Source: Candidatus Omnitrophota bacterium
GTDB taxonomy: Bacteria; Hinthialibacterota; Hinthialibacteria; Hinthialibacterales; JAKPRU01
Direction of reading: 5' to 3'
NCBI GenBank assembly: GCA_029570205.1
Contig: JAKQSI010000130.1
Span: 1-36,600, forward strand
DNA length: 36,600 nt
Both the position numbers and the translations under genes were made by a program. The notes under the pieces are model-generated. The model was not told where the DNA came from. It did not search any database and saw nothing but the letters and a program-made list of their open reading frames with translations. Positions 1 through 32,309 of the stretch are shown here, piece by piece; position 1 is the first letter of the stretch; each line of letters opens with the position of its first letter.

Positions 1-166
1 TCAACCCGTCCACATCCTCTTCCTCAAAACGGTGAATCCCTTTGTACCCCGTCTTTCGGCTGATTCCGTAACACCGGCACAAATCCGATATCGTGTATTC
101 TCCACTCAAATACTCTCCGATAAACCGAATCCGTTCTTCCATGGCACTGCTTTCCTTCCATGGCAT
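1..166 (-). CDS. IS481-like transposase, N-terminal part (runs off left edge)
   Basis: The minus strand is open from an ATG at 166 to the window edge, giving 55 codons. It begins MPWKESSAMEERIRFIG and continues with LCRCYGISRKTGYKGIHRF. This matches the start of IS481/integrase-core transposases: an MPWK opening, then a winged helix-turn-helix with a YGISRKTGYK recognition helix that binds the element ends. The catalytic DDE domain would lie outside the window. A strong ribosome site, AAAGGAGG, sits 6 bases before the ATG. The usual W of YKW is G here, which may mean drift. Whether the element is intact cannot be seen. Confidence 0.8.
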   Translation of the reverse strand, partial: MPWKESSAMEERIRFIGEYLSGEYTISDLCRCYGISRKTGYKGIHRFEEEDVDGL

Positions 167-395: not shown

Positions 396-1049
396 GTGCA
401 TCGTCGAGGGTTTACATTGATTGAACTTCTGATTGTGGTTGCGATCATCGGTATACTGGCCGCGATTGCGGTGCCTAATTTCTTGAACGCTCAACAGAAA
501 GCCAAAATCAGCCGGACCGTGGCGGATATGCGTGCGGTCTCCCAGGCCATTCTCCAGTTTCAAGTGGAACGCGGCACCATGCTGATCGACTTCTGGGATG
601 ATGGAACACCCTGGTCCCATGAGCGTTGGGTCAATTTCTTCAGTAAGGTCGGTCCGGATCCTCTTGCCACTTACCATCGCTTCGAGGAATGTTTCTATCC
701 TCTCACCAGCCCGGTTTCTTATCTGTCATCCGTTCCCCATGATCCCTTCGCTGTTTCCGTTCACTCGGTGGGATTCAGCGCGGATGAACAGGGACTTTCG
801 TATATCTATAATGATGAAGACCCTGAAGGAATCGCGAACGGCAGCCCCGGGAACTATGGAGTCGCAGTCAAACCGGCGCTCAGACCGGGAGATCATTTTC
901 TGGTCAGTATCGGGCCGGATGGCTATATCGGGATCAACAGCAGCGGCGACAAGCGTGGAACCCCGTATGATCCCTCCAATGGCGTCGCCAGCAAGGGGGA
1001 TTTGATTCGGCGCGGCGATGGCGGAGTGGCGTACGACCCCTACCGCTGA
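396..1049 (+). CDS. GspG-like pseudopilin (prepilin-type N-terminus)
   Basis: A protein of 217 residues starting MHRRGFTLIELLIVV. It has the short basic leader, G-FTLIE cleavage site and conserved Glu5 of type IV prepilins and type II secretion pseudopilins, followed by a helix ending in AVPNFLNAQ. It would be cleaved and N-methylated by a prepilin peptidase at the inner membrane and added to a periplasmic pseudopilus. The C-terminal half has a GPDG segment and a YDPSNGVASKGDL motif shared with the other three pseudopilins in this window. The GTG start is supported by AAAGGAG six bases upstream; no in-frame ATG near this position fits the leader. No secretion or pilus machinery genes are adjacent, so its assembly system is unknown. 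Confidence 0.88.
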   Translation: MHRRGFTLIELLIVVAIIGILAAIAVPNFLNAQQKAKISRTVADMRAVSQAILQFQVERGTMLIDFWDDGTPWSHERWVNFFSKVGPDPLATYHRFEECFYPLTSPVSYLSSVPHDPFAVSVHSVGFSADEQGLSYIYNDEDPEGIANGSPGNYGVAVKPALRPGDHFLVSIGPDGYIGINSSGDKRGTPYDPSNGVASKGDLIRRGDGGVAYDPYR

Positions 1050-1698: not shown

Positions 1699-4600
1699 TT
1701 ACCTGAAAACCCCCAATCTCTTTCCATCGAATCGCCGGTTTTTCTTCTTCTGCGGTTTTTCCGCAGCGGGTTCGGATTTGGGAATGGGTTCATTGGTGGG
1801 AGGCTGTTGCAACTCCGCGATCAGGTTCAGCATTTTCGCGGGCAGGTTGTTCCCCCCGGTTCTGTCTTCCACATCAATCACAATGTTCTCATCCCGGGTG
1901 GAAATGGTGAGTTTCAGTCCGTTCTTGCTGTCCATCTGCAAAACGCGAGTCGGATTGAATTTCTCGACCTGCGTGGTGTGGTAAATCAGGTGTCCGCGAT
2001 TCTTGCCGACATTGACCACCTCAAATCCCGCCTCATGTCCGGCCACCCGCAGGTGAAGGCCGAGCAGAAGACGCTCCACTTCCTCCGGGGGCTTCCCATA
2101 GATGTCGGTCAGTTCTTCTCGAAAATCCTCTATTTCCTCCGCCTTGAGGATTTTCAGCGCCCGCTGGTGAAGCGTCATCCGCTGCTGATTGCTCTCCACG
2201 TAATACGGCGGAATAACTCCCTTCGGCGCCATTTCCAAACTCGTTTCCCAGATTTCCGTCGCCTGCTTTTTCCCTTTCAAACGGGCAACGGTTTCGCGCA
2301 AAAGTTTGCTGTACAGGTCGAACCCAATAGCGGCAATATGCCCATGCTGCTGCCGACCCAGGATATTCCCGATTCCCCGAATCTCCATATCCCGCATGGC
2401 GATCTGGTATCCCGCTCCAAGCTCGTTATGTTCCTGAATCGCCAACAGGCGGCGTCTCGCGATGGCCGTCAGGGTCCGTTTCGAGGGAACCAGCAGGTAG
2501 CAGTAAGCCCGGTGACGGTCACGGCCCACCCGTCCACGCAGCTGATACAGCTGTGCCAGTCCGAAATGGTCCGCCCGGTTCACAATGATCGTGTTGACAT
2601 TGGGAATATCCAAACCGTTTTCGATGATCGTGGTCGCCACCAGCACATCGTATTCCCCGCGAATAAAGCGCGTCATAATGGCCTCCAGTTCCCGCTCCGA
2701 CATCTGACCATGAGCGATGGCGATCCGCGCTTCCGGGACAATTCGCTGAATCAGGCTCGCCATGGAAACGATACTTTCCACCCTGTTGTGGACCAGGTAT
2801 ACCTGCCCCTCGCGGGCCATTTCGCGAAGGATCGCTTTCTCAATCACCTCTTTCGACCATTCCATGACATACGTTTCGATGGGGAGCCGGTTTTTCGGAG
2901 GTGTGTTGACAACACTCATATCCCGAATGCCGGACAGAGAAAGGTACAGTGTGCGCGGGATGGGCGTCGCGGTCAGTGTCAGCGTATCGACCAACATTCG
3001 AAGTTGGCGAAGTCGTTCCTTGTGCTTCACTCCGAACCGCTGTTCCTCATCAATAATCACAAGCCCCAAGTCCGCAAATCCGACGTCCTTTGAAAGGAGT
3101 CGATGTGTGCCGACCACAATGTCGATCTTATTCTCTCTCAAGTCCCTCACGATATTCTTCTGTTCGACCGGCGAACGGAACCGGGAAAGCATTTCAACAC
3201 GGACCGGGTAATCCGCCAGGCGTTCGCGGAACGTATTGAAGTGCTGTTGCGCCAGAATGGTGGTCGGAACAAGCACAGCGACCTGTTTGCCGTCCATTAC
3301 TGCCTTGAATGCCGCGCGGATGGCAACTTCCGTTTTCCCGAATCCGACATCCCCGCAGATCAGGCGGTCCATCGGTTCCGGCGCTTCCATATCCCGCTTC
3401 ACCTCCTCAATGGATCGCCACTGATCGGGAGTTTCCTCATACAGAAAGGCGGATTCGAACTCATGCTGCCAGGGCGTGTCGGAGGCAAATCCATGGCCTT
3501 TTTTCATCTCGCGGGTCGCATAGATTTCCAGGAGTTCCCCAGCCATATCCTCTATCGCCTGCCTTGCCCGGCTTTTGGATTTCTCCCAGGTCTTGGTTCC
3601 CAAATGCGCCAGGACGGGCGGATTCGCCTCGCTTCCGATATAGCGCCCGACCCGGTCGATCTGGTCGATGGGCACATAAAGAACATCACGATCGGCATAC
3701 TCCAATTCGAGGTATTCGCCGGTCTTCCCACCGGTCGAAAGGGCTTTCAGTCCCCGAAACTTGCCGATTCCATGGTCGATATGAACCACAAAATCACCGG
3801 GACTCAGTTCCACAAGGTCCACAACCGGCAGCGCAATACCTTCCCGGTGCGGAGTTCGGAACCGACGGTATCGACCAAAAACTTCACGGTCCGTAATCAA
3901 ATCAAGACGCAGCAGCGGGACGGTGAATCCACGGCAGAGTTCTCCCACCAGTGTGTGCAAATCACCCGGATTGTCCGGCAAATGCTGGTTCCTTGCGACA
4001 TGAGCCACCAGCTCCTGAAAGCGCGTCTCCTGGCCTTTGTTGTCGCAGATAACAAACGTGGATCTTCCTTCCACAGCTCCGTTGAGAATCTGCAAAATGC
4101 GATCCGAGGAGTCCTCCGCGGTGAATGTCGGACTCTGGGTGCCGCAATTGACCGTGTCCGGTTCGGGAGGCAGGAAAAACTCCGTGAGATGGAGGCATCG
4201 CGCTTTTTTGCATAAATCCGAAAATTCGCTCGGATGCAGGTAAAGTTCCTCCGGCGAGCGCAAAAGAAGCCTCTGGTGCGGATGCAGTTCTTCTTCACCC
4301 AGCACCAATTCCTCTTGCTCGCGCCCTTCCAGCGCCTCGCGATATCCCCGATTCACAAGCGCAAAATAGGTTTCCAGCTCATTCTCGATCCGCTCCGGCT
4401 CATCCAGGACAATCAGAGGATTCGGCAAAAGTGAGGTGAGATAGTCCACCAGCGGCTTCTCCTCTTTTTCAAGCGCGCGGGCGATCAGCAGATCTTCATT
4501 ACTGGGATACAGATGGACCTCTTCCATTCTCTCGACGGATCGCTGCGTGGAAACATCAAACGTTCGGATGGAATCCACTTCATCCCCGAAGAACTCGATT

Positions 4601-5229
4601 CGAACAGCGCTGTGAAACGAAAGCGGGTAAATATCCAGGATGCCGCCACGGATAGAAAAATCGCCGCGTCGCGAGACCAGTTCCCGGAATTCATAGCCTT
4701 GCTCAACCAGCCATCGACCGACAGATTCCCGGTCCGCTTCCCGGCCGACCTGGAATACCAGACCCATTTCCGGGAACCGCGCCGGAGGCAGACCACGTTT
4801 CAACAGGGCCGGGGCGCAGGTCACAATAACCGTCGGTGTCCGGGGCGCATCGATTCGCCACCACTGCTCCCAGGCGTGACGGATCGTCAACATGCGTTCA
4901 AGACGAACGGTGAGTTCGGGACTTTGTGCCTCATAAGGAAGCACTTCCGGATGCGGATAAACAAGGACCTCTACCGGAAAATCCGTCTCCTGGAGAAAAA
5001 AACTGAGATCGTCCAGATGATGATAAATCTCCGATTGCTCCGCTGTTATGAACAGGATCGGCCGGTCGAGTGTCAGAGCAAGGTGCGAAACCACAAGCGC
5101 TTTTGAGGAACCGGCCAATTGTCCGGCCGAAGTGCCTTGTGAATCGGCACACCTCTCCGCGATCGTACGGAATGCCTCGGTATTCCGTATTTTGTCCAGC
5201 GCCTTGCGAAAAAGTCTTGAGTTCTGCAT
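1699..5229 (-). CDS. mfd: Transcription-repair coupling factor Mfd
   Basis: A protein of about 1176 residues, near the usual length of Mfd. Mfd binds RNA polymerase stalled at DNA damage, pushes it forward with a RecG-like translocase, and recruits UvrA. The order is complete: a UvrB-like N-terminal region (about 1-340), an RNA-polymerase interaction region around 475-545 with VVHIDHGIGKF, helicase motif I GDVGFGKT at 626-633, the DEEQ box at 727-730, the TATPIPRT and RGRVGR helicase motifs, and a C-terminal TRCF domain. An upstream TTG at 5244 is in frame, but the ATG at 5229 is preferred because homologues start close to the RLFRKAL segment; neither has a good ribosome site. It is transcribed away from the exb operon. 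Confidence 0.96.
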   Translation of the reverse strand: MQNSRLFRKALDKIRNTEAFRTIAERCADSQGTSAGQLAGSSKALVVSHLALTLDRPILFITAEQSEIYHHLDDLSFFLQETDFPVEVLVYPHPEVLPYEAQSPELTVRLERMLTIRHAWEQWWRIDAPRTPTVIVTCAPALLKRGLPPARFPEMGLVFQVGREADRESVGRWLVEQGYEFRELVSRRGDFSIRGGILDIYPLSFHSAVRIEFFGDEVDSIRTFDVSTQRSVERMEEVHLYPSNEDLLIARALEKEEKPLVDYLTSLLPNPLIVLDEPERIENELETYFALVNRGYREALEGREQEELVLGEEELHPHQRLLLRSPEELYLHPSEFSDLCKKARCLHLTEFFLPPEPDTVNCGTQSPTFTAEDSSDRILQILNGAVEGRSTFVICDNKGQETRFQELVAHVARNQHLPDNPGDLHTLVGELCRGFTVPLLRLDLITDREVFGRYRRFRTPHREGIALPVVDLVELSPGDFVVHIDHGIGKFRGLKALSTGGKTGEYLELEYADRDVLYVPIDQIDRVGRYIGSEANPPVLAHLGTKTWEKSKSRARQAIEDMAGELLEIYATREMKKGHGFASDTPWQHEFESAFLYEETPDQWRSIEEVKRDMEAPEPMDRLICGDVGFGKTEVAIRAAFKAVMDGKQVAVLVPTTILAQQHFNTFRERLADYPVRVEMLSRFRSPVEQKNIVRDLRENKIDIVVGTHRLLSKDVGFADLGLVIIDEEQRFGVKHKERLRQLRMLVDTLTLTATPIPRTLYLSLSGIRDMSVVNTPPKNRLPIETYVMEWSKEVIEKAILREMAREGQVYLVHNRVESIVSMASLIQRIVPEARIAIAHGQMSERELEAIMTRFIRGEYDVLVATTIIENGLDIPNVNTIIVNRADHFGLAQLYQLRGRVGRDRHRAYCYLLVPSKRTLTAIARRRLLAIQEHNELGAGYQIAMRDMEIRGIGNILGRQQHGHIAAIGFDLYSKLLRETVARLKGKKQATEIWETSLEMAPKGVIPPYYVESNQQRMTLHQRALKILKAEEIEDFREELTDIYGKPPEEVERLLLGLHLRVAGHEAGFEVVNVGKNRGHLIYHTTQVEKFNPTRVLQMDSKNGLKLTISTRDENIVIDVEDRTGGNNLPAKMLNLIAELQQPPTNEPIPKSEPAAEKPQKKKNRRFDGKRLGVFR

Positions 5230-5260
5230 GGAGTAATACGACAACTAGAAAACACACATA

Positions 5261-5596: not shown

Positions 5597-6346
5597 ATGG
5601 ACGGCAAATTGTTGATCTTCAAGCAATTCCCACGGAGAACTTTCTGGATTGCGGCAATGCTGTTTTATTCATTGCCCGGCCTGTGTCAGGAGTCATCACC
5701 CGAATTGGCCGACGAGGGCATGACTCTCTATGAGTTATTAAAAGCCGGCGGATGGACCATGGTTCCTCTTGCATTGCTTTCGCTGCTTGCCTTGGGGCTG
5801 ATTTTCTACTTCTTCTTCGCATTGACCCAACGCCGTCTCATGCCGAACGATCTCTTTCTCCAACTGCGGGGGCTGGCTCGTGATGCGCGATGGGATGATG
5901 TGTACCGGATCTGCAATGTCACACGCGGACCGCTGCCGAGCATGATTATGTCCGGTATCCGGCAGGCGGAAATAGACCCCAATAACATTGTAGAGGCCAT
6001 GCAGAACGCCGGAGACCGGGAAGTGCAAAAAATTATGCGCCAGGTTCGTTATCTCTCCGAAGTGGCCACTATCGCCCCCCTCCTGGGACTGCTTGGAACG
6101 GTGCTCGGAATGATTGATGCGTTCAGTTTCATCGCGGTCGATATCAGCATGGCCAAGCCCGTTACGCTTGCCATGGCGGTCGCCAAGGCTCTTGTGACCA
6201 CGGCCGTCGGACTGATTATTGCCATCCCCGCCATGGCGTTCTATTTCTATTTTCGCGGGCGAGTCCAGTCCATTTTCTCTCGCATCGAGGAAGCCGCGCA
6301 GGAGCTGGCCGATCGGATTCGCCAGGAACCACCGGGCAGGAGATGA
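5597..6346 (+). CDS. exbB: MotA/TolQ/ExbB-family proton channel protein
   Basis: A protein of 249 residues. After a signal-like N-terminal segment (about 14-32) it has a membrane helix near 53-75, a cytoplasmic loop, and two C-terminal helices. The helices carry LLGLLGTVLGMIDAF, with the pore threonine at T168, and LVTTAVGLIIAIPAMA with T201/T202, which mark the ExbB/TolQ family. ExbB pentamers with ExbD dimers form an inner-membrane channel that turns proton flow into work on a TonB or TolA-like protein. It is the first gene of a four-gene operon; exbD starts 6 bases after its stop. The Shine-Dalgarno sequence is weak. TolQ is an alternative name, since the two subfamilies cannot be told apart by eye. 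Confidence 0.9.
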   Translation: MDGKLLIFKQFPRRTFWIAAMLFYSLPGLCQESSPELADEGMTLYELLKAGGWTMVPLALLSLLALGLIFYFFFALTQRRLMPNDLFLQLRGLARDARWDDVYRICNVTRGPLPSMIMSGIRQAEIDPNNIVEAMQNAGDREVQKIMRQVRYLSEVATIAPLLGLLGTVLGMIDAFSFIAVDISMAKPVTLAMAVAKALVTTAVGLIIAIPAMAFYFYFRGRVQSIFSRIEEAAQELADRIRQEPPGRR

Positions 6347-6352
6347 ACAATC

Positions 6353-6784
6353 ATGAGACTCGGCAGACACATGATGGAGGAAGAACCGATCTTCATGATG
6401 GCTCCCATGATCGATATCGTTTTCTTGCTCCTGATATTCTTTTTGACAACCTCTCTCTTTGCCCGAATGGAGAATGAGCTCTCCATCACGGTGCCGACAG
6501 CAGACCAATCGCAGCCCCCTCGCCGCACTCCCGGCGAGATCATCATCAACCTCACCAAAGAGGGAACCATTATAGTAAATCAACGCCGGCTGGAACTCGA
6601 CCAGCTGGAGGATATCCTGGTCAAGATCGGTAAACTATATAAGGATCAGTCGGTGATTATTCGGGGAGACAAGGACGCCCTGTTCGGTCGAGCTGTTGCC
6701 ATTTTGGATGCCTGTGCAAAAGCCGGGATCTGGAACGTGTCATTCGCCGCCGTCCAGAGCGAACTCGGAGCCTCTCAGGGATGA
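6353..6784 (+). CDS. exbD: ExbD/TolR-family biopolymer transport protein
   Basis: A protein of 143 residues: a short cytoplasmic N-terminus, one membrane helix (about 18-37) and a periplasmic domain. The helix starts MAPMIDIVFLLLIFFLTTS, in which D21 corresponds to the proton-carrying Asp25 of E. coli ExbD and Asp23 of TolR. The periplasmic part ends with the usual IRGDKDALFGRAVAILDAC segment seen in ExbD/TolR. AGGAG overlaps the end of exbB, so translation is probably coupled. It forms the channel with the upstream ExbB. All residues needed for proton conduction that I can check are present. Confidence 0.92.
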   Translation: MRLGRHMMEEEPIFMMAPMIDIVFLLLIFFLTTSLFARMENELSITVPTADQSQPPRRTPGEIIINLTKEGTIIVNQRRLELDQLEDILVKIGKLYKDQSVIIRGDKDALFGRAVAILDACAKAGIWNVSFAAVQSELGASQG

Positions 6785-6841
6785 TGGTCTCCCCCTGGAA
6801 TCGAAACAGGGAGGCGGATCGACAAAGCGTTCGAGGTCAAT

Positions 6842-9289
6842 ATGGGACACAAGGTCCTGCTGTTTCTTTGCTTCGCCGTTCCGGGAATGGTCGTTGTCGC
6901 CGTTCCGGGATTCTCCCAGGACACGACACGCCCCGCACAGGTCCCGTCTGTCCCCACACCGGATAAGGCACAGAACCAGTTGGATTTCGCCGATGGCCAG
7001 TATCAGCGAAACCTGTTCCTCGGCGCCGCAGAGGAATACGCCCGGTTCATCGAATCGTATCCCAACCACGAGAAAGTCCCCGTCGCATTGTTCCGTCGCG
7101 CGGAATGTCTCTATCAGGCTTCCTTTAAAGACCCGGCCAAACGTATGGATCTTCTCAAACAGGCGGAAGAGACTTTACGAACCCTCCTGGAACGGTATCC
7201 CCAGAACGAACGCCGTACGGAGGCCCTGTTGCGTCGGGGCGAGATTCTTTGCCACCTGGATCGCGCAGCAGAAGCGTCACCCCTGTTGTCGGAGCTGCTG
7301 AAAGCGCCGCTTTCCGAAAAGGTCGAGGAAGCGGTCCGTTTTCATCTCGGACAGGCTTACTACGCCGAAGGCAAGATTCCGCTCGCCGAAAAAGAATGGG
7401 AAACCCTTCGCCGAAAATTCCCCAAAGGAAATCTGTACGCGCCCGCCACTTATTCCCTGGCGCTGATCAAAAAACAGAAATCTCAGCCGGATGCGGCCAT
7501 CGCGCTTCTCAACGAGTTGATCACGGCCAATCCTCCGTTCCCGTTACCCGAAAACAGTCCGATCCCGGGCGATTCACGGATCCTTCTCGCGCAGATTTAT
7601 ACGCAGATGGGCGACCACGCGCGCGCCGCCGCACTTTATGAAGAAGCAAGCCGCGAACCGCGTCACCGAATCAATGCTTTATACTTGCGCGCCTGGTCTC
7701 TGTTTCAACAACAGAAATTCCCGGAGACCATTGACCTCTCTCAAAAGCTACTTGAGGAACCCACTCTCGGCGATCACCAGGCCGGCGTGCTGTTCCTCTT
7801 GGGAACATCCCTGTATGAAACCAAAAACTACAAGAAGGCCATCGAACCGCTTCGACAGGTAACCGTCCATCCCAAAGCCGCCGAGTTCCGCACCCAGGCC
7901 TGGTATCGACTGGTCTGGGCGCTCTTTCTCACCGAAGACTACGAAGAAGCCAAACAGCAGGCGCAGGAACTGCTGAAACTGAAACTCGACCCCGCCCTCG
8001 CGGGCGATGTACATTTTCTCCTGGGGCAGATTGCCGCCGCCGCGAAACAGTACTCGGAAGCGGCAGTGCAGTATCGCACGGTAGTCGAACAGTTCCCCGC
8101 CTCCCGGTTTATCGAAAAAGCCGCATACGGAGTCGGCGAGATGGAATACTCCAACCGTGCGTTCGACCGCGCCGCGCAGGCATTTTCTGCTTTCTTAAAA
8201 GCCTTTCCGGAAAGTTCACTATACAATGAAGCCTTACGGTGGGTGGCCGAATCCCTCTTGCAGGCCGGCCAGGCGGCAGAGGCCGCGCAACGGTTTTCGG
8301 AACTGATTCAGCGCTGTCCCGATCATCCGGATTTGTCCCGATTCCTGTACCTCCAGGGATTGGCCCTGCATAAAAGCGAGCAGAAGGAAGCGATGCGGAA
8401 ACCGCTGGAGGACCTGCTGCAACGGTTTCCCAAATCGCCCGATGCTCAGAAAGCCTTGTATTGGCTGGCCTGGCAGGATGACGAAACCGGAAACAAGGAA
8501 CGCGCATTACAGGAATATGAACGACTCTTGAAAGAGTACCCGGAGTCCGAGTACGCCCCCATCGCCCGCAGACGCCTGGCTATTGGGAATATCCACGCAG
8601 GTCGGCTCGATCTGGCCCTTCCCATGTTGCTGGAAGTGCTTGCGGATACCGAGGAAGCCAAAAAAGTCGGCCCGGAAATCTACTTCCGAATGGCTATTTA
8701 TGCCTCCGATCAGGGAAAACACGATGAGGCGCTGACGATGCTGAATCGTGTAACCGAGGTACACCCGCAGCCCGAAGTCATCGAACGCGCTTTGATCGAA
8801 CAGGGCCGGGAAGCGGTTGTAACCGGACAATGGGCAAAGGCCATGGCCCAGGCAAATGAGTTTTTTGAGAAGTTCCCCAACAGTCCATATCGCCCGGAAG
8901 GGTGCTGGATCCGCGCCCGCGCACTCCAGGGCTTGAACCGGCTTGATGAGGCCGAACAGGCTTTCCAGGAAGGCCTTGCGGCTCTGGCAAATCTTGGAAG
9001 TCCCGATCCGGCTTTCGAGGCAACCTTGCATTTGGATTGGGCCAAGCTGCTCGAAGCGCGGAATCGCCCGGAAGACGCGCTGAAAGAATACCTGTACGTA
9101 GACATTCTGTTTCCCGGTCCCAAAACCTCACCCGAAGCCTTGTTCCGCGCCTCCGCTTGCCAGGAACAATTGGGACGGATCGAAGAGGCCAAAGCAACGC
9201 TTCGGCAATTAGTCGAAATGTTCCCCAATACGCCCGAAGCCCAGAAAGCCGCCCAGCGTCTGGAACAATTCGGAAAAACGGCGGGATAA
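6842..9289 (+). CDS. Secreted tetratricopeptide-repeat protein of the exb operon
   Basis: A protein of 815 residues with a signal peptide ending near GFSQ (residues 1-26), followed by TPR and TPR-like repeats over almost the whole length. Recurrent pieces include PNHEKVPVALFRRAE, PKSPDAQKALYWLAW and FPNTPEAQKAAQRL, the last resembling the C-terminal TPR of CpoB/YbgF, which belongs to the Tol-Pal system. TPR arrays are protein-binding scaffolds, so a periplasmic adaptor role for the energised complex is likely. It follows exbD by 57 bases with GAGG before the ATG, and the VWA gene starts 3 bases after its stop. No catalytic domain is seen. An outer-membrane link is possible but not shown, and there is no lipobox. 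Confidence 0.88.
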   Translation: MGHKVLLFLCFAVPGMVVVAVPGFSQDTTRPAQVPSVPTPDKAQNQLDFADGQYQRNLFLGAAEEYARFIESYPNHEKVPVALFRRAECLYQASFKDPAKRMDLLKQAEETLRTLLERYPQNERRTEALLRRGEILCHLDRAAEASPLLSELLKAPLSEKVEEAVRFHLGQAYYAEGKIPLAEKEWETLRRKFPKGNLYAPATYSLALIKKQKSQPDAAIALLNELITANPPFPLPENSPIPGDSRILLAQIYTQMGDHARAAALYEEASREPRHRINALYLRAWSLFQQQKFPETIDLSQKLLEEPTLGDHQAGVLFLLGTSLYETKNYKKAIEPLRQVTVHPKAAEFRTQAWYRLVWALFLTEDYEEAKQQAQELLKLKLDPALAGDVHFLLGQIAAAAKQYSEAAVQYRTVVEQFPASRFIEKAAYGVGEMEYSNRAFDRAAQAFSAFLKAFPESSLYNEALRWVAESLLQAGQAAEAAQRFSELIQRCPDHPDLSRFLYLQGLALHKSEQKEAMRKPLEDLLQRFPKSPDAQKALYWLAWQDDETGNKERALQEYERLLKEYPESEYAPIARRRLAIGNIHAGRLDLALPMLLEVLADTEEAKKVGPEIYFRMAIYASDQGKHDEALTMLNRVTEVHPQPEVIERALIEQGREAVVTGQWAKAMAQANEFFEKFPNSPYRPEGCWIRARALQGLNRLDEAEQAFQEGLAALANLGSPDPAFEATLHLDWAKLLEARNRPEDALKEYLYVDILFPGPKTSPEALFRASACQEQLGRIEEAKATLRQLVEMFPNTPEAQKAAQRLEQFGKTAG

Positions 9290-9292
9290 GCG

Positions 9293-11188
9293 ATGCGGTA
9301 TGAATATCACATAGAACGGAAGCCGTTTCTCGAGCGGCCCTCACTGGCCGAGCCGGTCACAAACGTTCTGCTGATTCTTTCCCTTCTGCTTTCTCTCCTG
9401 ATTCATGTTCTGTTCCTATTCGAATCCAGGCGGATTCGCGTGGGTATTGTCGGCAAAATGGAGCAACAGATCGGGCATATCTTTAATGTCCGTTTTGACG
9501 ATATCGGCCGCATACCGGAGGCGACAACACGTCAGGCGCCGGAAGAAATCCAGAGAGAACGGGATCAGGTGTTTCGCGAGAATTTGCAACAGGCGCAGGC
9601 GGTCCCACCTCCCCGGTTGGAAGAAGAATTGGAAAATCTCCTGTCGGAGGCGGGGGAGCCGATGGAAACTCCCCTGACTCCCGGCGAGACTCCTCAGGGG
9701 GAAGCCGCCAGTGGAACCATCGCCGGAATTCCCCTGGCTCCCGGCGAAATCCCCCAGGGATTGGCCGCCGGTGGAGCCGTCGGTGTCCCCGAAGTCATTA
9801 CCAGTGAGGCCGGGGTGCGTCAACTGGGTCGCCTGGCCGATGGTTTTTTACAGGGAGCCATCCAAGACACCATTACGGTGAACCGCCCGACACTCGGTTC
9901 CGGCAGCGCCTATCGGCAGCAACGAATCCTGGAGGGCCTTCCTTCCAACCTCATCGAAGTGCCGTCGGACAAGCCATCCACTGCTCTGGCCGCGCCGCCG
10001 ATGGGAGTCCCTATTCCCGATTTGAACCTCCGCCCAACCCTGTTGAATCTCGCCCCGCCGCAACCCGAATTGCCGGGACAACCCCTTGATCTCAGCGCAA
10101 TCTCCCCCGGATCCTTGCCGACCGAAGACCAGGTCAAGAACGATATCAAGGACCGATTCGTTCGCCTGGATAATGTAATGAACGTCGAAATCATTACCTA
10201 CCGAGAGCGCCCCGGCAGCGGCTATTTTCTCCTCCGCATTACTCCGCGACGAGCGGCCGACCGCTTGCAGCCCCTGCCGAAAGATGTAATCTTCGTGCTG
10301 GATGCCTCGGCGAGTATGGGCCGTCGAACCCTGGAAATAATCAAACAGGCCGTTAAGGAATCCCTCCGCGAACTGAACGAATCGGATCGGTTCAACCTGG
10401 TCGGATTCAAAAGCCGTGTCGAAATCCTCTCCCAGAATCTGGTCCCGGCCACTCCGCTGAATATCTCCGAAGCATGGACCTTCATCAGTCGGCTGGAAGC
10501 CTCCGGCATGACCGATATCTATACCTCCCTCGAACCCCTGATGACTATGGGAACAGAACGGGCACGCCCGTTCTCCATCTATCTGTTCTCCGACGGCCGT
10601 CCGACATTGGGCGTAGTCAACAGCCGCGCGATTATTAACCGATTATCGGAACGCCGCGGCCCCAGTACCTCGGTCTTTGCAATCAGCGCGGGGGATGATG
10701 TGAACCGCTACCTCTTGGATTTCCTGGCTTATCGAAACCGGGGAAGAGTCTGTTTTATCGAATCAAAAGATTCCATCGTCGAGGAATCCGTGCGATTTGT
10801 GCGCACACTGAAATATCCTTTACTTCTCCGGGTGAGCGCGGATTTCGGTAAGGTGAACCGCGATGAGGTGTATCCGCACGACCTCCCCGATCTGTACCGG
10901 GACATGCCGATGGAAATCTACGGAAGATTTTCCGATGAACAAGAGTTGACCGTCCGACTGGTCGGCGAGGCCTTCGATGAGCAGAAAGAACTGCTTGTGA
11001 ATCTGCCGATACCCGACAAGGATCTGGGCGGACCCGAAATCGCAAAGGGGTGGGCGTTGCGGAAAATTTACTACCTGATTTCTCTCATCGTCCAGCACGG
11101 CGAACAGCCGCCGATCATCGGCGCGATCAATCGGCTGAGCGAACAATACGGAATTATCACACCGTACCACTCACAGTTCAGAAAATAG
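9293..11188 (+). CDS. TonB/TolA-like membrane-anchored VWA-domain protein
   Basis: A protein of 631 residues. The N-terminus is cytoplasmic, with one membrane helix at about 25-43 containing S34-LLI-H38, the S-x3-H motif that lets TonB and TolA couple to ExbB/TolQ. A long Pro/Gly/Glu-rich linker (about 90-310) follows. The von Willebrand factor A domain has a full metal-binding site: DASAS at 337-341, T407 in SGMTD, and D434 in FSDGRPT. The C-terminal 120 residues form another beta-rich segment. It starts 3 bases after the TPR gene and is clearly co-translated. There is no TonB C-terminal domain. By family knowledge VWA domains bind protein partners through Mg2+; that the channel drives this one is inference. 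Confidence 0.85.
   Translation: MRYEYHIERKPFLERPSLAEPVTNVLLILSLLLSLLIHVLFLFESRRIRVGIVGKMEQQIGHIFNVRFDDIGRIPEATTRQAPEEIQRERDQVFRENLQQAQAVPPPRLEEELENLLSEAGEPMETPLTPGETPQGEAASGTIAGIPLAPGEIPQGLAAGGAVGVPEVITSEAGVRQLGRLADGFLQGAIQDTITVNRPTLGSGSAYRQQRILEGLPSNLIEVPSDKPSTALAAPPMGVPIPDLNLRPTLLNLAPPQPELPGQPLDLSAISPGSLPTEDQVKNDIKDRFVRLDNVMNVEIITYRERPGSGYFLLRITPRRAADRLQPLPKDVIFVLDASASMGRRTLEIIKQAVKESLRELNESDRFNLVGFKSRVEILSQNLVPATPLNISEAWTFISRLEASGMTDIYTSLEPLMTMGTERARPFSIYLFSDGRPTLGVVNSRAIINRLSERRGPSTSVFAISAGDDVNRYLLDFLAYRNRGRVCFIESKDSIVEESVRFVRTLKYPLLLRVSADFGKVNRDEVYPHDLPDLYRDMPMEIYGRFSDEQELTVRLVGEAFDEQKELLVNLPIPDKDLGGPEIAKGWALRKIYYLISLIVQHGEQPPIIGAINRLSEQYGIITPYHSQFRK
9671..9790 (+). repeat. 60-bp tandem duplication in the VWA protein linker
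   Basis: Two adjacent 60-base units (9671-9730 and 9731-9790) encode PLTPGETPQGEAASGTIAGI and PLAPGEIPQGLAAGGAVGVP. The duplication keeps the reading frame and lengthens the periplasmic linker by 20 residues. The copies have diverged at many positions but remain obviously related. Confidence 0.75.
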
Positions 11189-31742: not shown

Positions 31743-32309
31743 ATGAAACGCTTTTACAAAGAATATTGGAACCGTCTTGGATTCACTCTCATTGAGCTTC
31801 TGATCGTTGTCGCGATTATCGGCATCCTGGCCGCCATCGCCGTACCCAACTTCCGAAAGGCCCAACACCGGGCCATGATTTCCCGTGGGCTGGCAGACAT
31901 GCGCTCGGTCGTGCAGGCCTATCGCATGTATTTTTTGGACAACAACGGCTGGCCCGACCACAGCGACCTCCCCTGGGCAATGAATCCCCTCACGACACCG
32001 ATCGCCTATCTGAACACGCTGATCTATGATGTATTCACTCTAACGGACCCCTCCAATAAGAGCAAAGCCCCCAAAGATATGATCCATGGGGGTATTCCCC
32101 ATTTCGAATCGGGCTGTGGTTGGTTCAAGAGCGGTCCCGATGGAAAACACCTCGCCGCTTATCAGGAGTCCGATCGAATGCTTTTCCTGCACGGTCCCAA
32201 CGGCTACGCGAACATCTATGCGGCAAGCAACGGCACATTCAGCAACGGCGGCCTCTGGTATATGATGACCAAAGACGGCAAGCCCCGCTGGGGAGACGAG
32301 TTTCACTGA
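31743..32309 (+). CDS. GspG-like pseudopilin
   Basis: A protein of 188 residues with a longer leader, MKRFYKEYWNRLGFTLIELL, and the canonical Gly before the cleavage site. The helix ends AVPNFRKAQ. The C-terminal half has FKSGPDG and YAASNGTFSNGGLW, a degenerate form of the signature in the other three pseudopilins. AGGAG lies about 9 bases before the ATG. A terminator-like hairpin separates it from the third pseudopilin, so it may have its own promoter. It converges with a metallophosphoesterase gene. Confidence 0.87.
   Translation: MKRFYKEYWNRLGFTLIELLIVVAIIGILAAIAVPNFRKAQHRAMISRGLADMRSVVQAYRMYFLDNNGWPDHSDLPWAMNPLTTPIAYLNTLIYDVFTLTDPSNKSKAPKDMIHGGIPHFESGCGWFKSGPDGKHLAAYQESDRMLFLHGPNGYANIYAASNGTFSNGGLWYMMTKDGKPRWGDEFH

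What the first reader, a model, noticed from the sequence alone, without database searches (positions are those of the whole stretch)
5597..11188. ExbB-ExbD channel linked to a TonB/TolA-like VWA protein and a TPR protein
Four genes are packed with gaps of 6, 57 and 3 bases. The last protein has one N-terminal membrane helix with S34-x3-H38, the motif by which TonB (S16, H20) and TolA couple to ExbB/TolQ, but it ends in a VWA domain with an intact metal site (DASAS 337-341, T407, D434) instead of a TonB or TolA C-terminal domain. This suggests proton-driven motion of a periplasmic VWA head, with the TPR protein as partner. It would resemble a cross between Tol-Pal and the Bat aerotolerance operons.
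Basis: partly seen in the sequence, partly recalled or inferred. Interest (0 to 1): 0.75.

Follow-up and report, generated by a model that had tools for sequence, protein, structure and literature searches.

The report
Proton-motor-linked VWA force transducer operon
These four genes most likely build a little-known envelope machine, in which a proton-driven membrane motor of the TolQR/ExbBD type pulls on a metal-binding VWA adhesion-type head through a TonB-like helix; the general class was proposed in 2025, and this operon is a well-supported, distinct single-ExbD version of it.

Summary
In detail: exbB–exbD–TPR–VWA at the stated coordinates, gaps 6/57/3, with S34-x3-H38 in the single N-terminal helix and an intact MIDAS. 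Of 73 non-VIT homologous loci with a readable N-terminus, found with VWA-domain patterns only, 73 keep the histidine and 72 the serine; background is about 1 in 154. Of 52 loci with 4 kb or more upstream, 32 carry exbB+exbD+TPR and 12 TPR only. Where exbBD is not adjacent, 16 of 17 genomes examined hold a matching exbBD pair elsewhere. All ExbBs tied to this VWA form one clade (SH-aLRT 94) free of other systems. One linked homologue has Tyr in place of His. The head is a VWA+hybrid module like ITIH heavy chain 1. The host, inferred to be Candidatus Hinthialibacterota, has separate TolQRAB and MotAB. The class itself, vWA force transducers, was proposed by Williams-Jones et al. 2025 (PMC12204202). 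This operon differs in single ExbD, gene order, longer linker and head type, so it reads as a new variant. What the head binds, and any movement, remain unshown.

The parts
5597..6346 (+). exbB/tolQ-like motor subunit (249 aa), member of a clade found only with this VWA family
   Evidence: Pfam PF01618 E 9e-29; pore Thr168/Thr202 kept; ExbB tree
6353..6784 (+). exbD/tolR-like subunit (143 aa), proton-site Asp D21
   Evidence: Pfam PF02472 E 5e-28; D21 identical in 37/37
6842..9289 (+). TPR solenoid protein (815 aa) with predicted signal peptide, YbgF/CpoB- and BamD-like repeats; predicted periplasmic
   Evidence: TPR_6 E 2e-53, NCBIfam YbgF repeat match; AF2 pLDDT 90, 42 helices; signal peptide judged by eye, not by a predictor
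9293..11188 (+). vWA transducer (631 aa): coupling helix, linker, vWA+hybrid head
9353..9427 (+). coupling transmembrane helix, residues 21-45, with S34-x3-H38
   Evidence: AF2 helix 21-45; H38 47/47, S34 46/47
9476..9505 (+). candidate motor box (HIFNVRFDDI, residues 62-71): alternating hydrophobic strand-like segment kept across homologues; inference
   Evidence: alignment print; definition of motor box from PMC12204202
9650..10075 (+). low-complexity linker (residues 120-261), predicted disordered
   Evidence: pLDDT below 50 throughout
10157..11182 (+). vWA + hybrid-type head (residues 289-630) with MIDAS D337/S339/S341/T407/D434

Best explanation
A dedicated proton-driven motor (ExbB pentamer with ExbD dimer, by analogy) holds the VWA protein by its N-terminal helix through S34/H38. 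Proton flow through ExbB T168/T202 and ExbD D21 is passed through a largely disordered linker to a metal-binding vWA+hybrid head in the periplasm, which grips a partner on the peptidoglycan or outer-membrane side and pulls or releases it. The periplasmic TPR solenoid is the most likely docking scaffold or regulator of that head. Shown here: gene content, near-invariant motif, a motor clade specific to this family, conservation of the metal site, head fold by prediction. Inferred: complex formation, force, the partner, and the role of TPR. The physiological task is not known; envelope maintenance or surface adhesion/motility are the leading guesses.
For: 80 loci were found with patterns from the VWA domain only. 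5 are VIT-type paralogues without the motif and 2 are cut at the N-terminus; of the 73 others all have x3-H in the helix and 72 have S-x3-H, two of them read across frameshifts. Background about 1 in 154. H38 is one of 14 invariant columns in 47 sequences. 32 of 52 loci with 4 kb upstream have exbB+exbD+TPR, 12 TPR only. ExbB tree: all VWA-linked ExbBs plus the unlinked ones tested form one clade, 53 rows, SH-aLRT 94, no foreign member. In 16 of 17 genomes with unlinked VWA a high-scoring exbBD pair sits elsewhere. Two further full-length members found outside the phylum in a 386-genome sample both have exbB-exbD-TPR-VWA. ExbD D21 37/37, ExbB T202 36/36. Candidate motor box. VIT-type paralogues lack both helix motif and exbBD neighbours. 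Own genome has separate TolQRAB and MotAB, so this motor has no other obvious client, and an Omp85, so probably an outer membrane.
Against: G166 (L325) has Tyr in place of His although exbBD and TPR are linked. L050 and L328 have Ala in place of Ser. 20 of 52 loci have no adjacent exbBD, and for one such genome (G062) no intact partner motor was found. The L and second S of the full SHLS motif are not kept at the TonB spacing in the window protein. No complex was modelled, and no experiment exists. The ExbB tree is a quick tree; the careful search did not finish.
Confidence: 0.8

Rival explanations
1. The helix docks on the motor only to anchor or regulate it; the VWA head is a static adhesion or assembly factor that reports on ExbBD activity, and no force reaches it.
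For: Motif and linkage show docking, not movement; VWA heads commonly act as static binding modules; head and metal site match ITIH/VWA adhesion folds.
Against: A long disordered linker between helix and head, plus proton-path residues all intact, is the anatomy of TolA/TonB, where force is transmitted.
Confidence: 0.15
2. On the task of the machine: Tol-like envelope maintenance. The system duplicates or specialises Tol-Pal, moving an outer-membrane or peptidoglycan lipoprotein, with the TPR protein in the place of CpoB.
For: TPR repeats resemble YbgF/CpoB and BamD; motor resembles TolQR.
Against: The genome already has TolQ-TolR-TolA-TolB; no Pal- or TolB-like gene in this operon.
Confidence: 0.35
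3. On the task of the machine: surface adhesion or gliding. The head acts on an outer-membrane adhesin complex, as suggested in PMC12204202.
For: vWA+hybrid heads are adhesion modules; suggestion in the paper.
Against: No adhesin or motility gene in the operon; no phenotype known for the phylum.
Confidence: 0.25
4. A Bat/MoxR-type system in which the VWA and TPR genes are the active part and exbBD is a neighbour by chance.
For: VWA plus TPR also occurs in Bat operons (general knowledge).
Against: Recurrent exbBD order across several phyla, dedicated ExbB clade, coupling motif; no MoxR adjacent.
Confidence: 0.02

Closest known systems
vWA force transducers of Williams-Jones et al. 2025 (Mol Biol Evol msaf138, PMC12204202), Tichowtungia-type family
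   Same: N-terminal helix with the Ser/His motor motif, linker, vWA head, next to TPR and TolQ/TolR-like genes, PVC-group distribution
   Different: The paper describes a pair of tolR-like genes, a domain II of about 100 residues and a YfbK-like head; here one ExbD in 36 of 36 linked loci of the 80-locus set, order exbB-exbD-TPR-vwa, linker up to about 230 residues, ITIH-type head. Operons matching the paper's wording (L214, L236, L271) fall beside, not inside, this ExbB clade, and their vWA aligns only over about 76 columns. Whether the paper's set also includes the present family could not be checked (no supplements).
TolQ-TolR-TolA / ExbB-ExbD-TonB
   Same: Motor subunits, S-x3-H helix, disordered linker, possible motor box
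   Different: Head is vWA+hybrid, not a TonB_C/TolA C-terminal domain
VIT-vWA proteins (TIGR03788 marine sortase target; ITIH heavy chains)
   Same: Head residues 304-627 match TIGR03788 at E 2e-45; fold matches ITIH heavy chain 1 over 293-629, Z 22.9, rmsd 3.5, 326 residues
   Different: VIT domain absent, replaced by coupling helix and linker; score far below the TIGR03788 cut-off (155 vs 552 bits)
TPH-vWA proteins with TolQ only (second family of PMC12204202)
   Same: Membrane-tethered vWA with TolQ-like motor
   Different: They carry a pore Asp and no exbD; the window helix has no Asp and an exbD is present

Membership tests
vWA force transducers (PMC12204202) | single N-terminal TM helix with conserved motor-binding His (and Ser) | tested here: met
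vWA force transducers (PMC12204202) | disordered/Pro-rich linker followed by a vWA-fold head | tested here: met
vWA force transducers (PMC12204202) | synteny with TPR and tolQ/tolR-like genes | tested here: met
[quoted passage not shown]
   one ExbD in the window and in 36/36 linked loci of the 80-locus set; stated by the paper as frequent, not as required
vWA force transducers (PMC12204202) | predicted motor-box strand after the helix | tested here: inconclusive
   conserved alternating segment at 62-71, but AF2 gives helix/low confidence there
vWA force transducers (PMC12204202) | direct relation to the Tichowtungia vWA family by sequence | not testable with these tools
   paper's sequences and supplements not available
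TonB / TolA | TonB_C or TolA C-terminal domain | tested here: not met
   no TonB_C/TonB_2/TolA match in the VWA protein; the genome's own TolA-like gene is elsewhere
TonB / TolA | S-x3-H in the coupling helix | tested here: met
TIGR03788 / ITIH (VIT-vWA) | VIT domain before the vWA | tested here: not met
   no VIT domain in Pfam scan; match starts at profile position 245
TPH-vWA with TolQ only | pore-lining Asp in the helix and no exbD | tested here: not met
   no Asp in residues 21-45; exbD at 6353-6784
Bat aerotolerance operons | MoxR ATPase beside VWA genes | tested here: not met
   neighbours are mfd and Gfo/Idh/MocA genes

The most novel reading that the evidence does not exclude
A separate lineage of proton-driven envelope machines, with its own motor clade, in which an ITIH-like vWA+hybrid adhesion head was joined to a TonB-type helix in place of its VIT domain, and works as an energised, metal-dependent catch-and-release hand with a TPR scaffold; not covered by the published Tichowtungia-type family.
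Probability: 0.35. Interest if true: 0.75.

Novelty: new variant of a known kind. Interest (0 to 1): 0.5.

Why it matters
Among envelope systems powered by 5:2 proton motors that transmit force across the periplasm, Tol and Ton are the well-studied ones. A further kind with an adhesion-type, metal-binding head, present in all 14 sampled genomes of one candidate phylum and recurring across PVC-related phyla, widens what such motors may drive. The near-fixed histidine and the motor clade make the claim directly testable by two point mutations.

Tried and rejected
Search of viral contigs found no relative. Rfam found no RNA element in the window. Bat/MoxR reading: no MoxR beside the operon. TPH-vWA reading: no Asp in the helix. 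Chance linkage: rejected by recurrence and by the ExbB tree. G011 appeared to fuse TPR and VWA in one 1564-aa frame; the frame also runs through exbD in another phase and the joint reads like a frameshift, so it was not used as fusion evidence. Initial impression that H38 is strictly invariant was corrected by G166 (Tyr). Co-folding of ExbB, ExbD and the helix was not possible with the tool (single chains only). The careful version of the ExbB tree was not completed. The wanted check against the paper's own sequence set was not possible (supplements not held).

Full report
What is there. Four + strand genes, 5597-11188, with gaps 6, 57 and 3, encode ExbB, ExbD, a TPR protein and a VWA protein. 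They lie between mfd (1699-5244, - strand) and a Gfo/Idh/MocA gene. The genome is a draft of 4.39 Mb in 131 contigs. One genome of its phylum set, G010, has a contig (C52) of the same length, 56,423 bases, and with the same match as a record named Candidatus Hinthialibacteria OLB16; several other genomes of the set are deposited as Omnitrophota. I read the host as Candidatus Hinthialibacterota, by this inference.

The VWA protein. S34 and H38 sit in the only N-terminal helix (21-45). Residues 120-261 are predicted disordered and 289-630 form a confident head. The head matches the ITIH heavy chain 1 vWA and following domains over 293-629 (Z 22.9, rmsd 3.5, 326 residues) and archaeal ArnB/VWA2 with similar Z but larger rmsd. 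By sequence the nearest models are TIGR03788 and ITIH H4. The metal site is identical in all 47 aligned homologues.

Test 1, the motif. The genome scan used patterns from the VWA domain only, so the helix was not selected for. Of 80 loci, 5 are VIT-type and 2 lack the N-terminus. All 73 others have a histidine at this place and 72 have S-x3-H (L054 read from a second frame, L058; L050 has Ala). The rate in other N-terminal hydrophobic stretches of the same loci is 2 of 155, one of which is L058 itself. An additional search of 386 genomes gave, outside the phylum, two full-length members: one keeps S-x3-H, the other, L325, has Tyr in place of His. So the histidine is nearly, not strictly, fixed.

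Test 2, the neighbours. Of 52 loci with 4 kb or more upstream, 32 have exbB+exbD+TPR, 12 TPR only, 8 none. I then asked whether the genomes without adjacent exbBD have a matching motor elsewhere. Thirteen such genomes were searched for MotA_ExbB and the phylum as well. A pair whose ExbB scores 199-294 bits against the family model was found in twelve of the thirteen; G062 gave only a fragment at a contig end. Within the phylum, G005 has an unlinked pair (285 bits) and family f4 (G010, G012, G013) has unlinked pairs at 166-183 bits. ExbB tree of 130 rows: VWA-linked and these unlinked ExbBs form one group of 53 rows, SH-aLRT 94, with no member from another kind of operon; three rows labelled 'other' there are the window's own ExbB, G002's copy on a short contig, and G010's unlinked copy. 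This is a quick tree; the careful one did not finish. The pairs of G069 and G073 were scored later and are not in the tree.

Neighbouring groups in that tree. The nearest group (L214, L236, L271) has two ExbDs and another vWA protein (the copy in L214 is cut off before the domain), of which L214 and L236 carry S-x3-H. Its gene order fits the description in PMC12204202 better than the window does. The next has two ExbDs and a protein with an alpha/alpha-toroid-like domain. The two vWA families align only in the vWA core.

Other motors in the genome. G000 holds three MotA_ExbB genes: TolQ with TolR, a TonB_2-type TolA and TolB, MotA beside flagellar-type genes, and the present one. An Omp85 is present, so an outer membrane is likely.

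Distribution. All 14 genomes of the phylum hold the VWA protein. In the wider sample the matches split into full-length ones starting at model position 13 or lower and head-only ones starting at about 229 or higher (G010, which starts at 179, is cut by a frameshift). The head-only ones examined are VIT-type proteins with no exbBD; one further protein, in G143 (L328), has a helix with A-x3-H but no exbBD nearby. A parsimonious reading, by inference, is that a secreted VIT-vWA protein gained a coupling helix in place of its VIT domain.

The TPR protein. Repeats resemble YbgF/CpoB and BamD models; the model is one continuous solenoid of 42 helices, pLDDT 90. Most homologues start with a signal-peptide-like stretch (read by eye). 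It is the most constant neighbour of the VWA gene (44 of 52 loci).

Possible motor box. After the helix, one short segment with alternating hydrophobic residues (window 62-71) can be traced in the 47 homologues while the rest of the linker is poorly alignable. TolA and TonB have a predicted strand, the motor box, in this place. AF2 does not show a strand here, so this is a lead.

Literature. Full-text searches found one paper on the subject, PMC12204202, which proposes vWA force transducers with the SHLS motif, TPR and TolQR neighbours, and a suggested motility role. The present work adds a test of the motif against an unselected set, a motor clade, the unlinked-motor result, a new phylum and the ITIH-type head. 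It adds no proof of force.

Noticed in passing
L254:338-2023, L264:165-1688, L238:111-1808: Operons with TPR, ExbB, ExbD genes (two in most) and a membrane protein with an alpha/alpha-toroid (squalene-cyclase/prenyltransferase/TED-like) domain; their ExbBs form a clade (SH-aLRT 100). Possibly another kind of motor-driven protein.
   Followed up: partly
L214, L236, L271: TPR, ExbB, ExbD, ExbD, vWA operons whose ExbB group is nearest to the window family; probable match of the published Tichowtungia-type family.
   Followed up: partly
L325 (G166): VWA transducer with Tyr at the histidine position although exbBD and TPR are adjacent.
   Followed up: partly
L168, L170, L176, L229: Tandem ExbB genes, a long one (491-653 aa) followed by a short one, in genomes that also have TonB_C genes just downstream.
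   Followed up: no
window 396-1049, 1119-1679, 31743-32309: Several prepilin-type proteins with nearly identical N-termini (TLIELLIVVAIIGILAAIAVPNF).
   Followed up: no
L034:6676-11370: TPR and VWA genes of G011 appear in one open frame of 1564 aa; joint looks frameshifted.
   Followed up: partly
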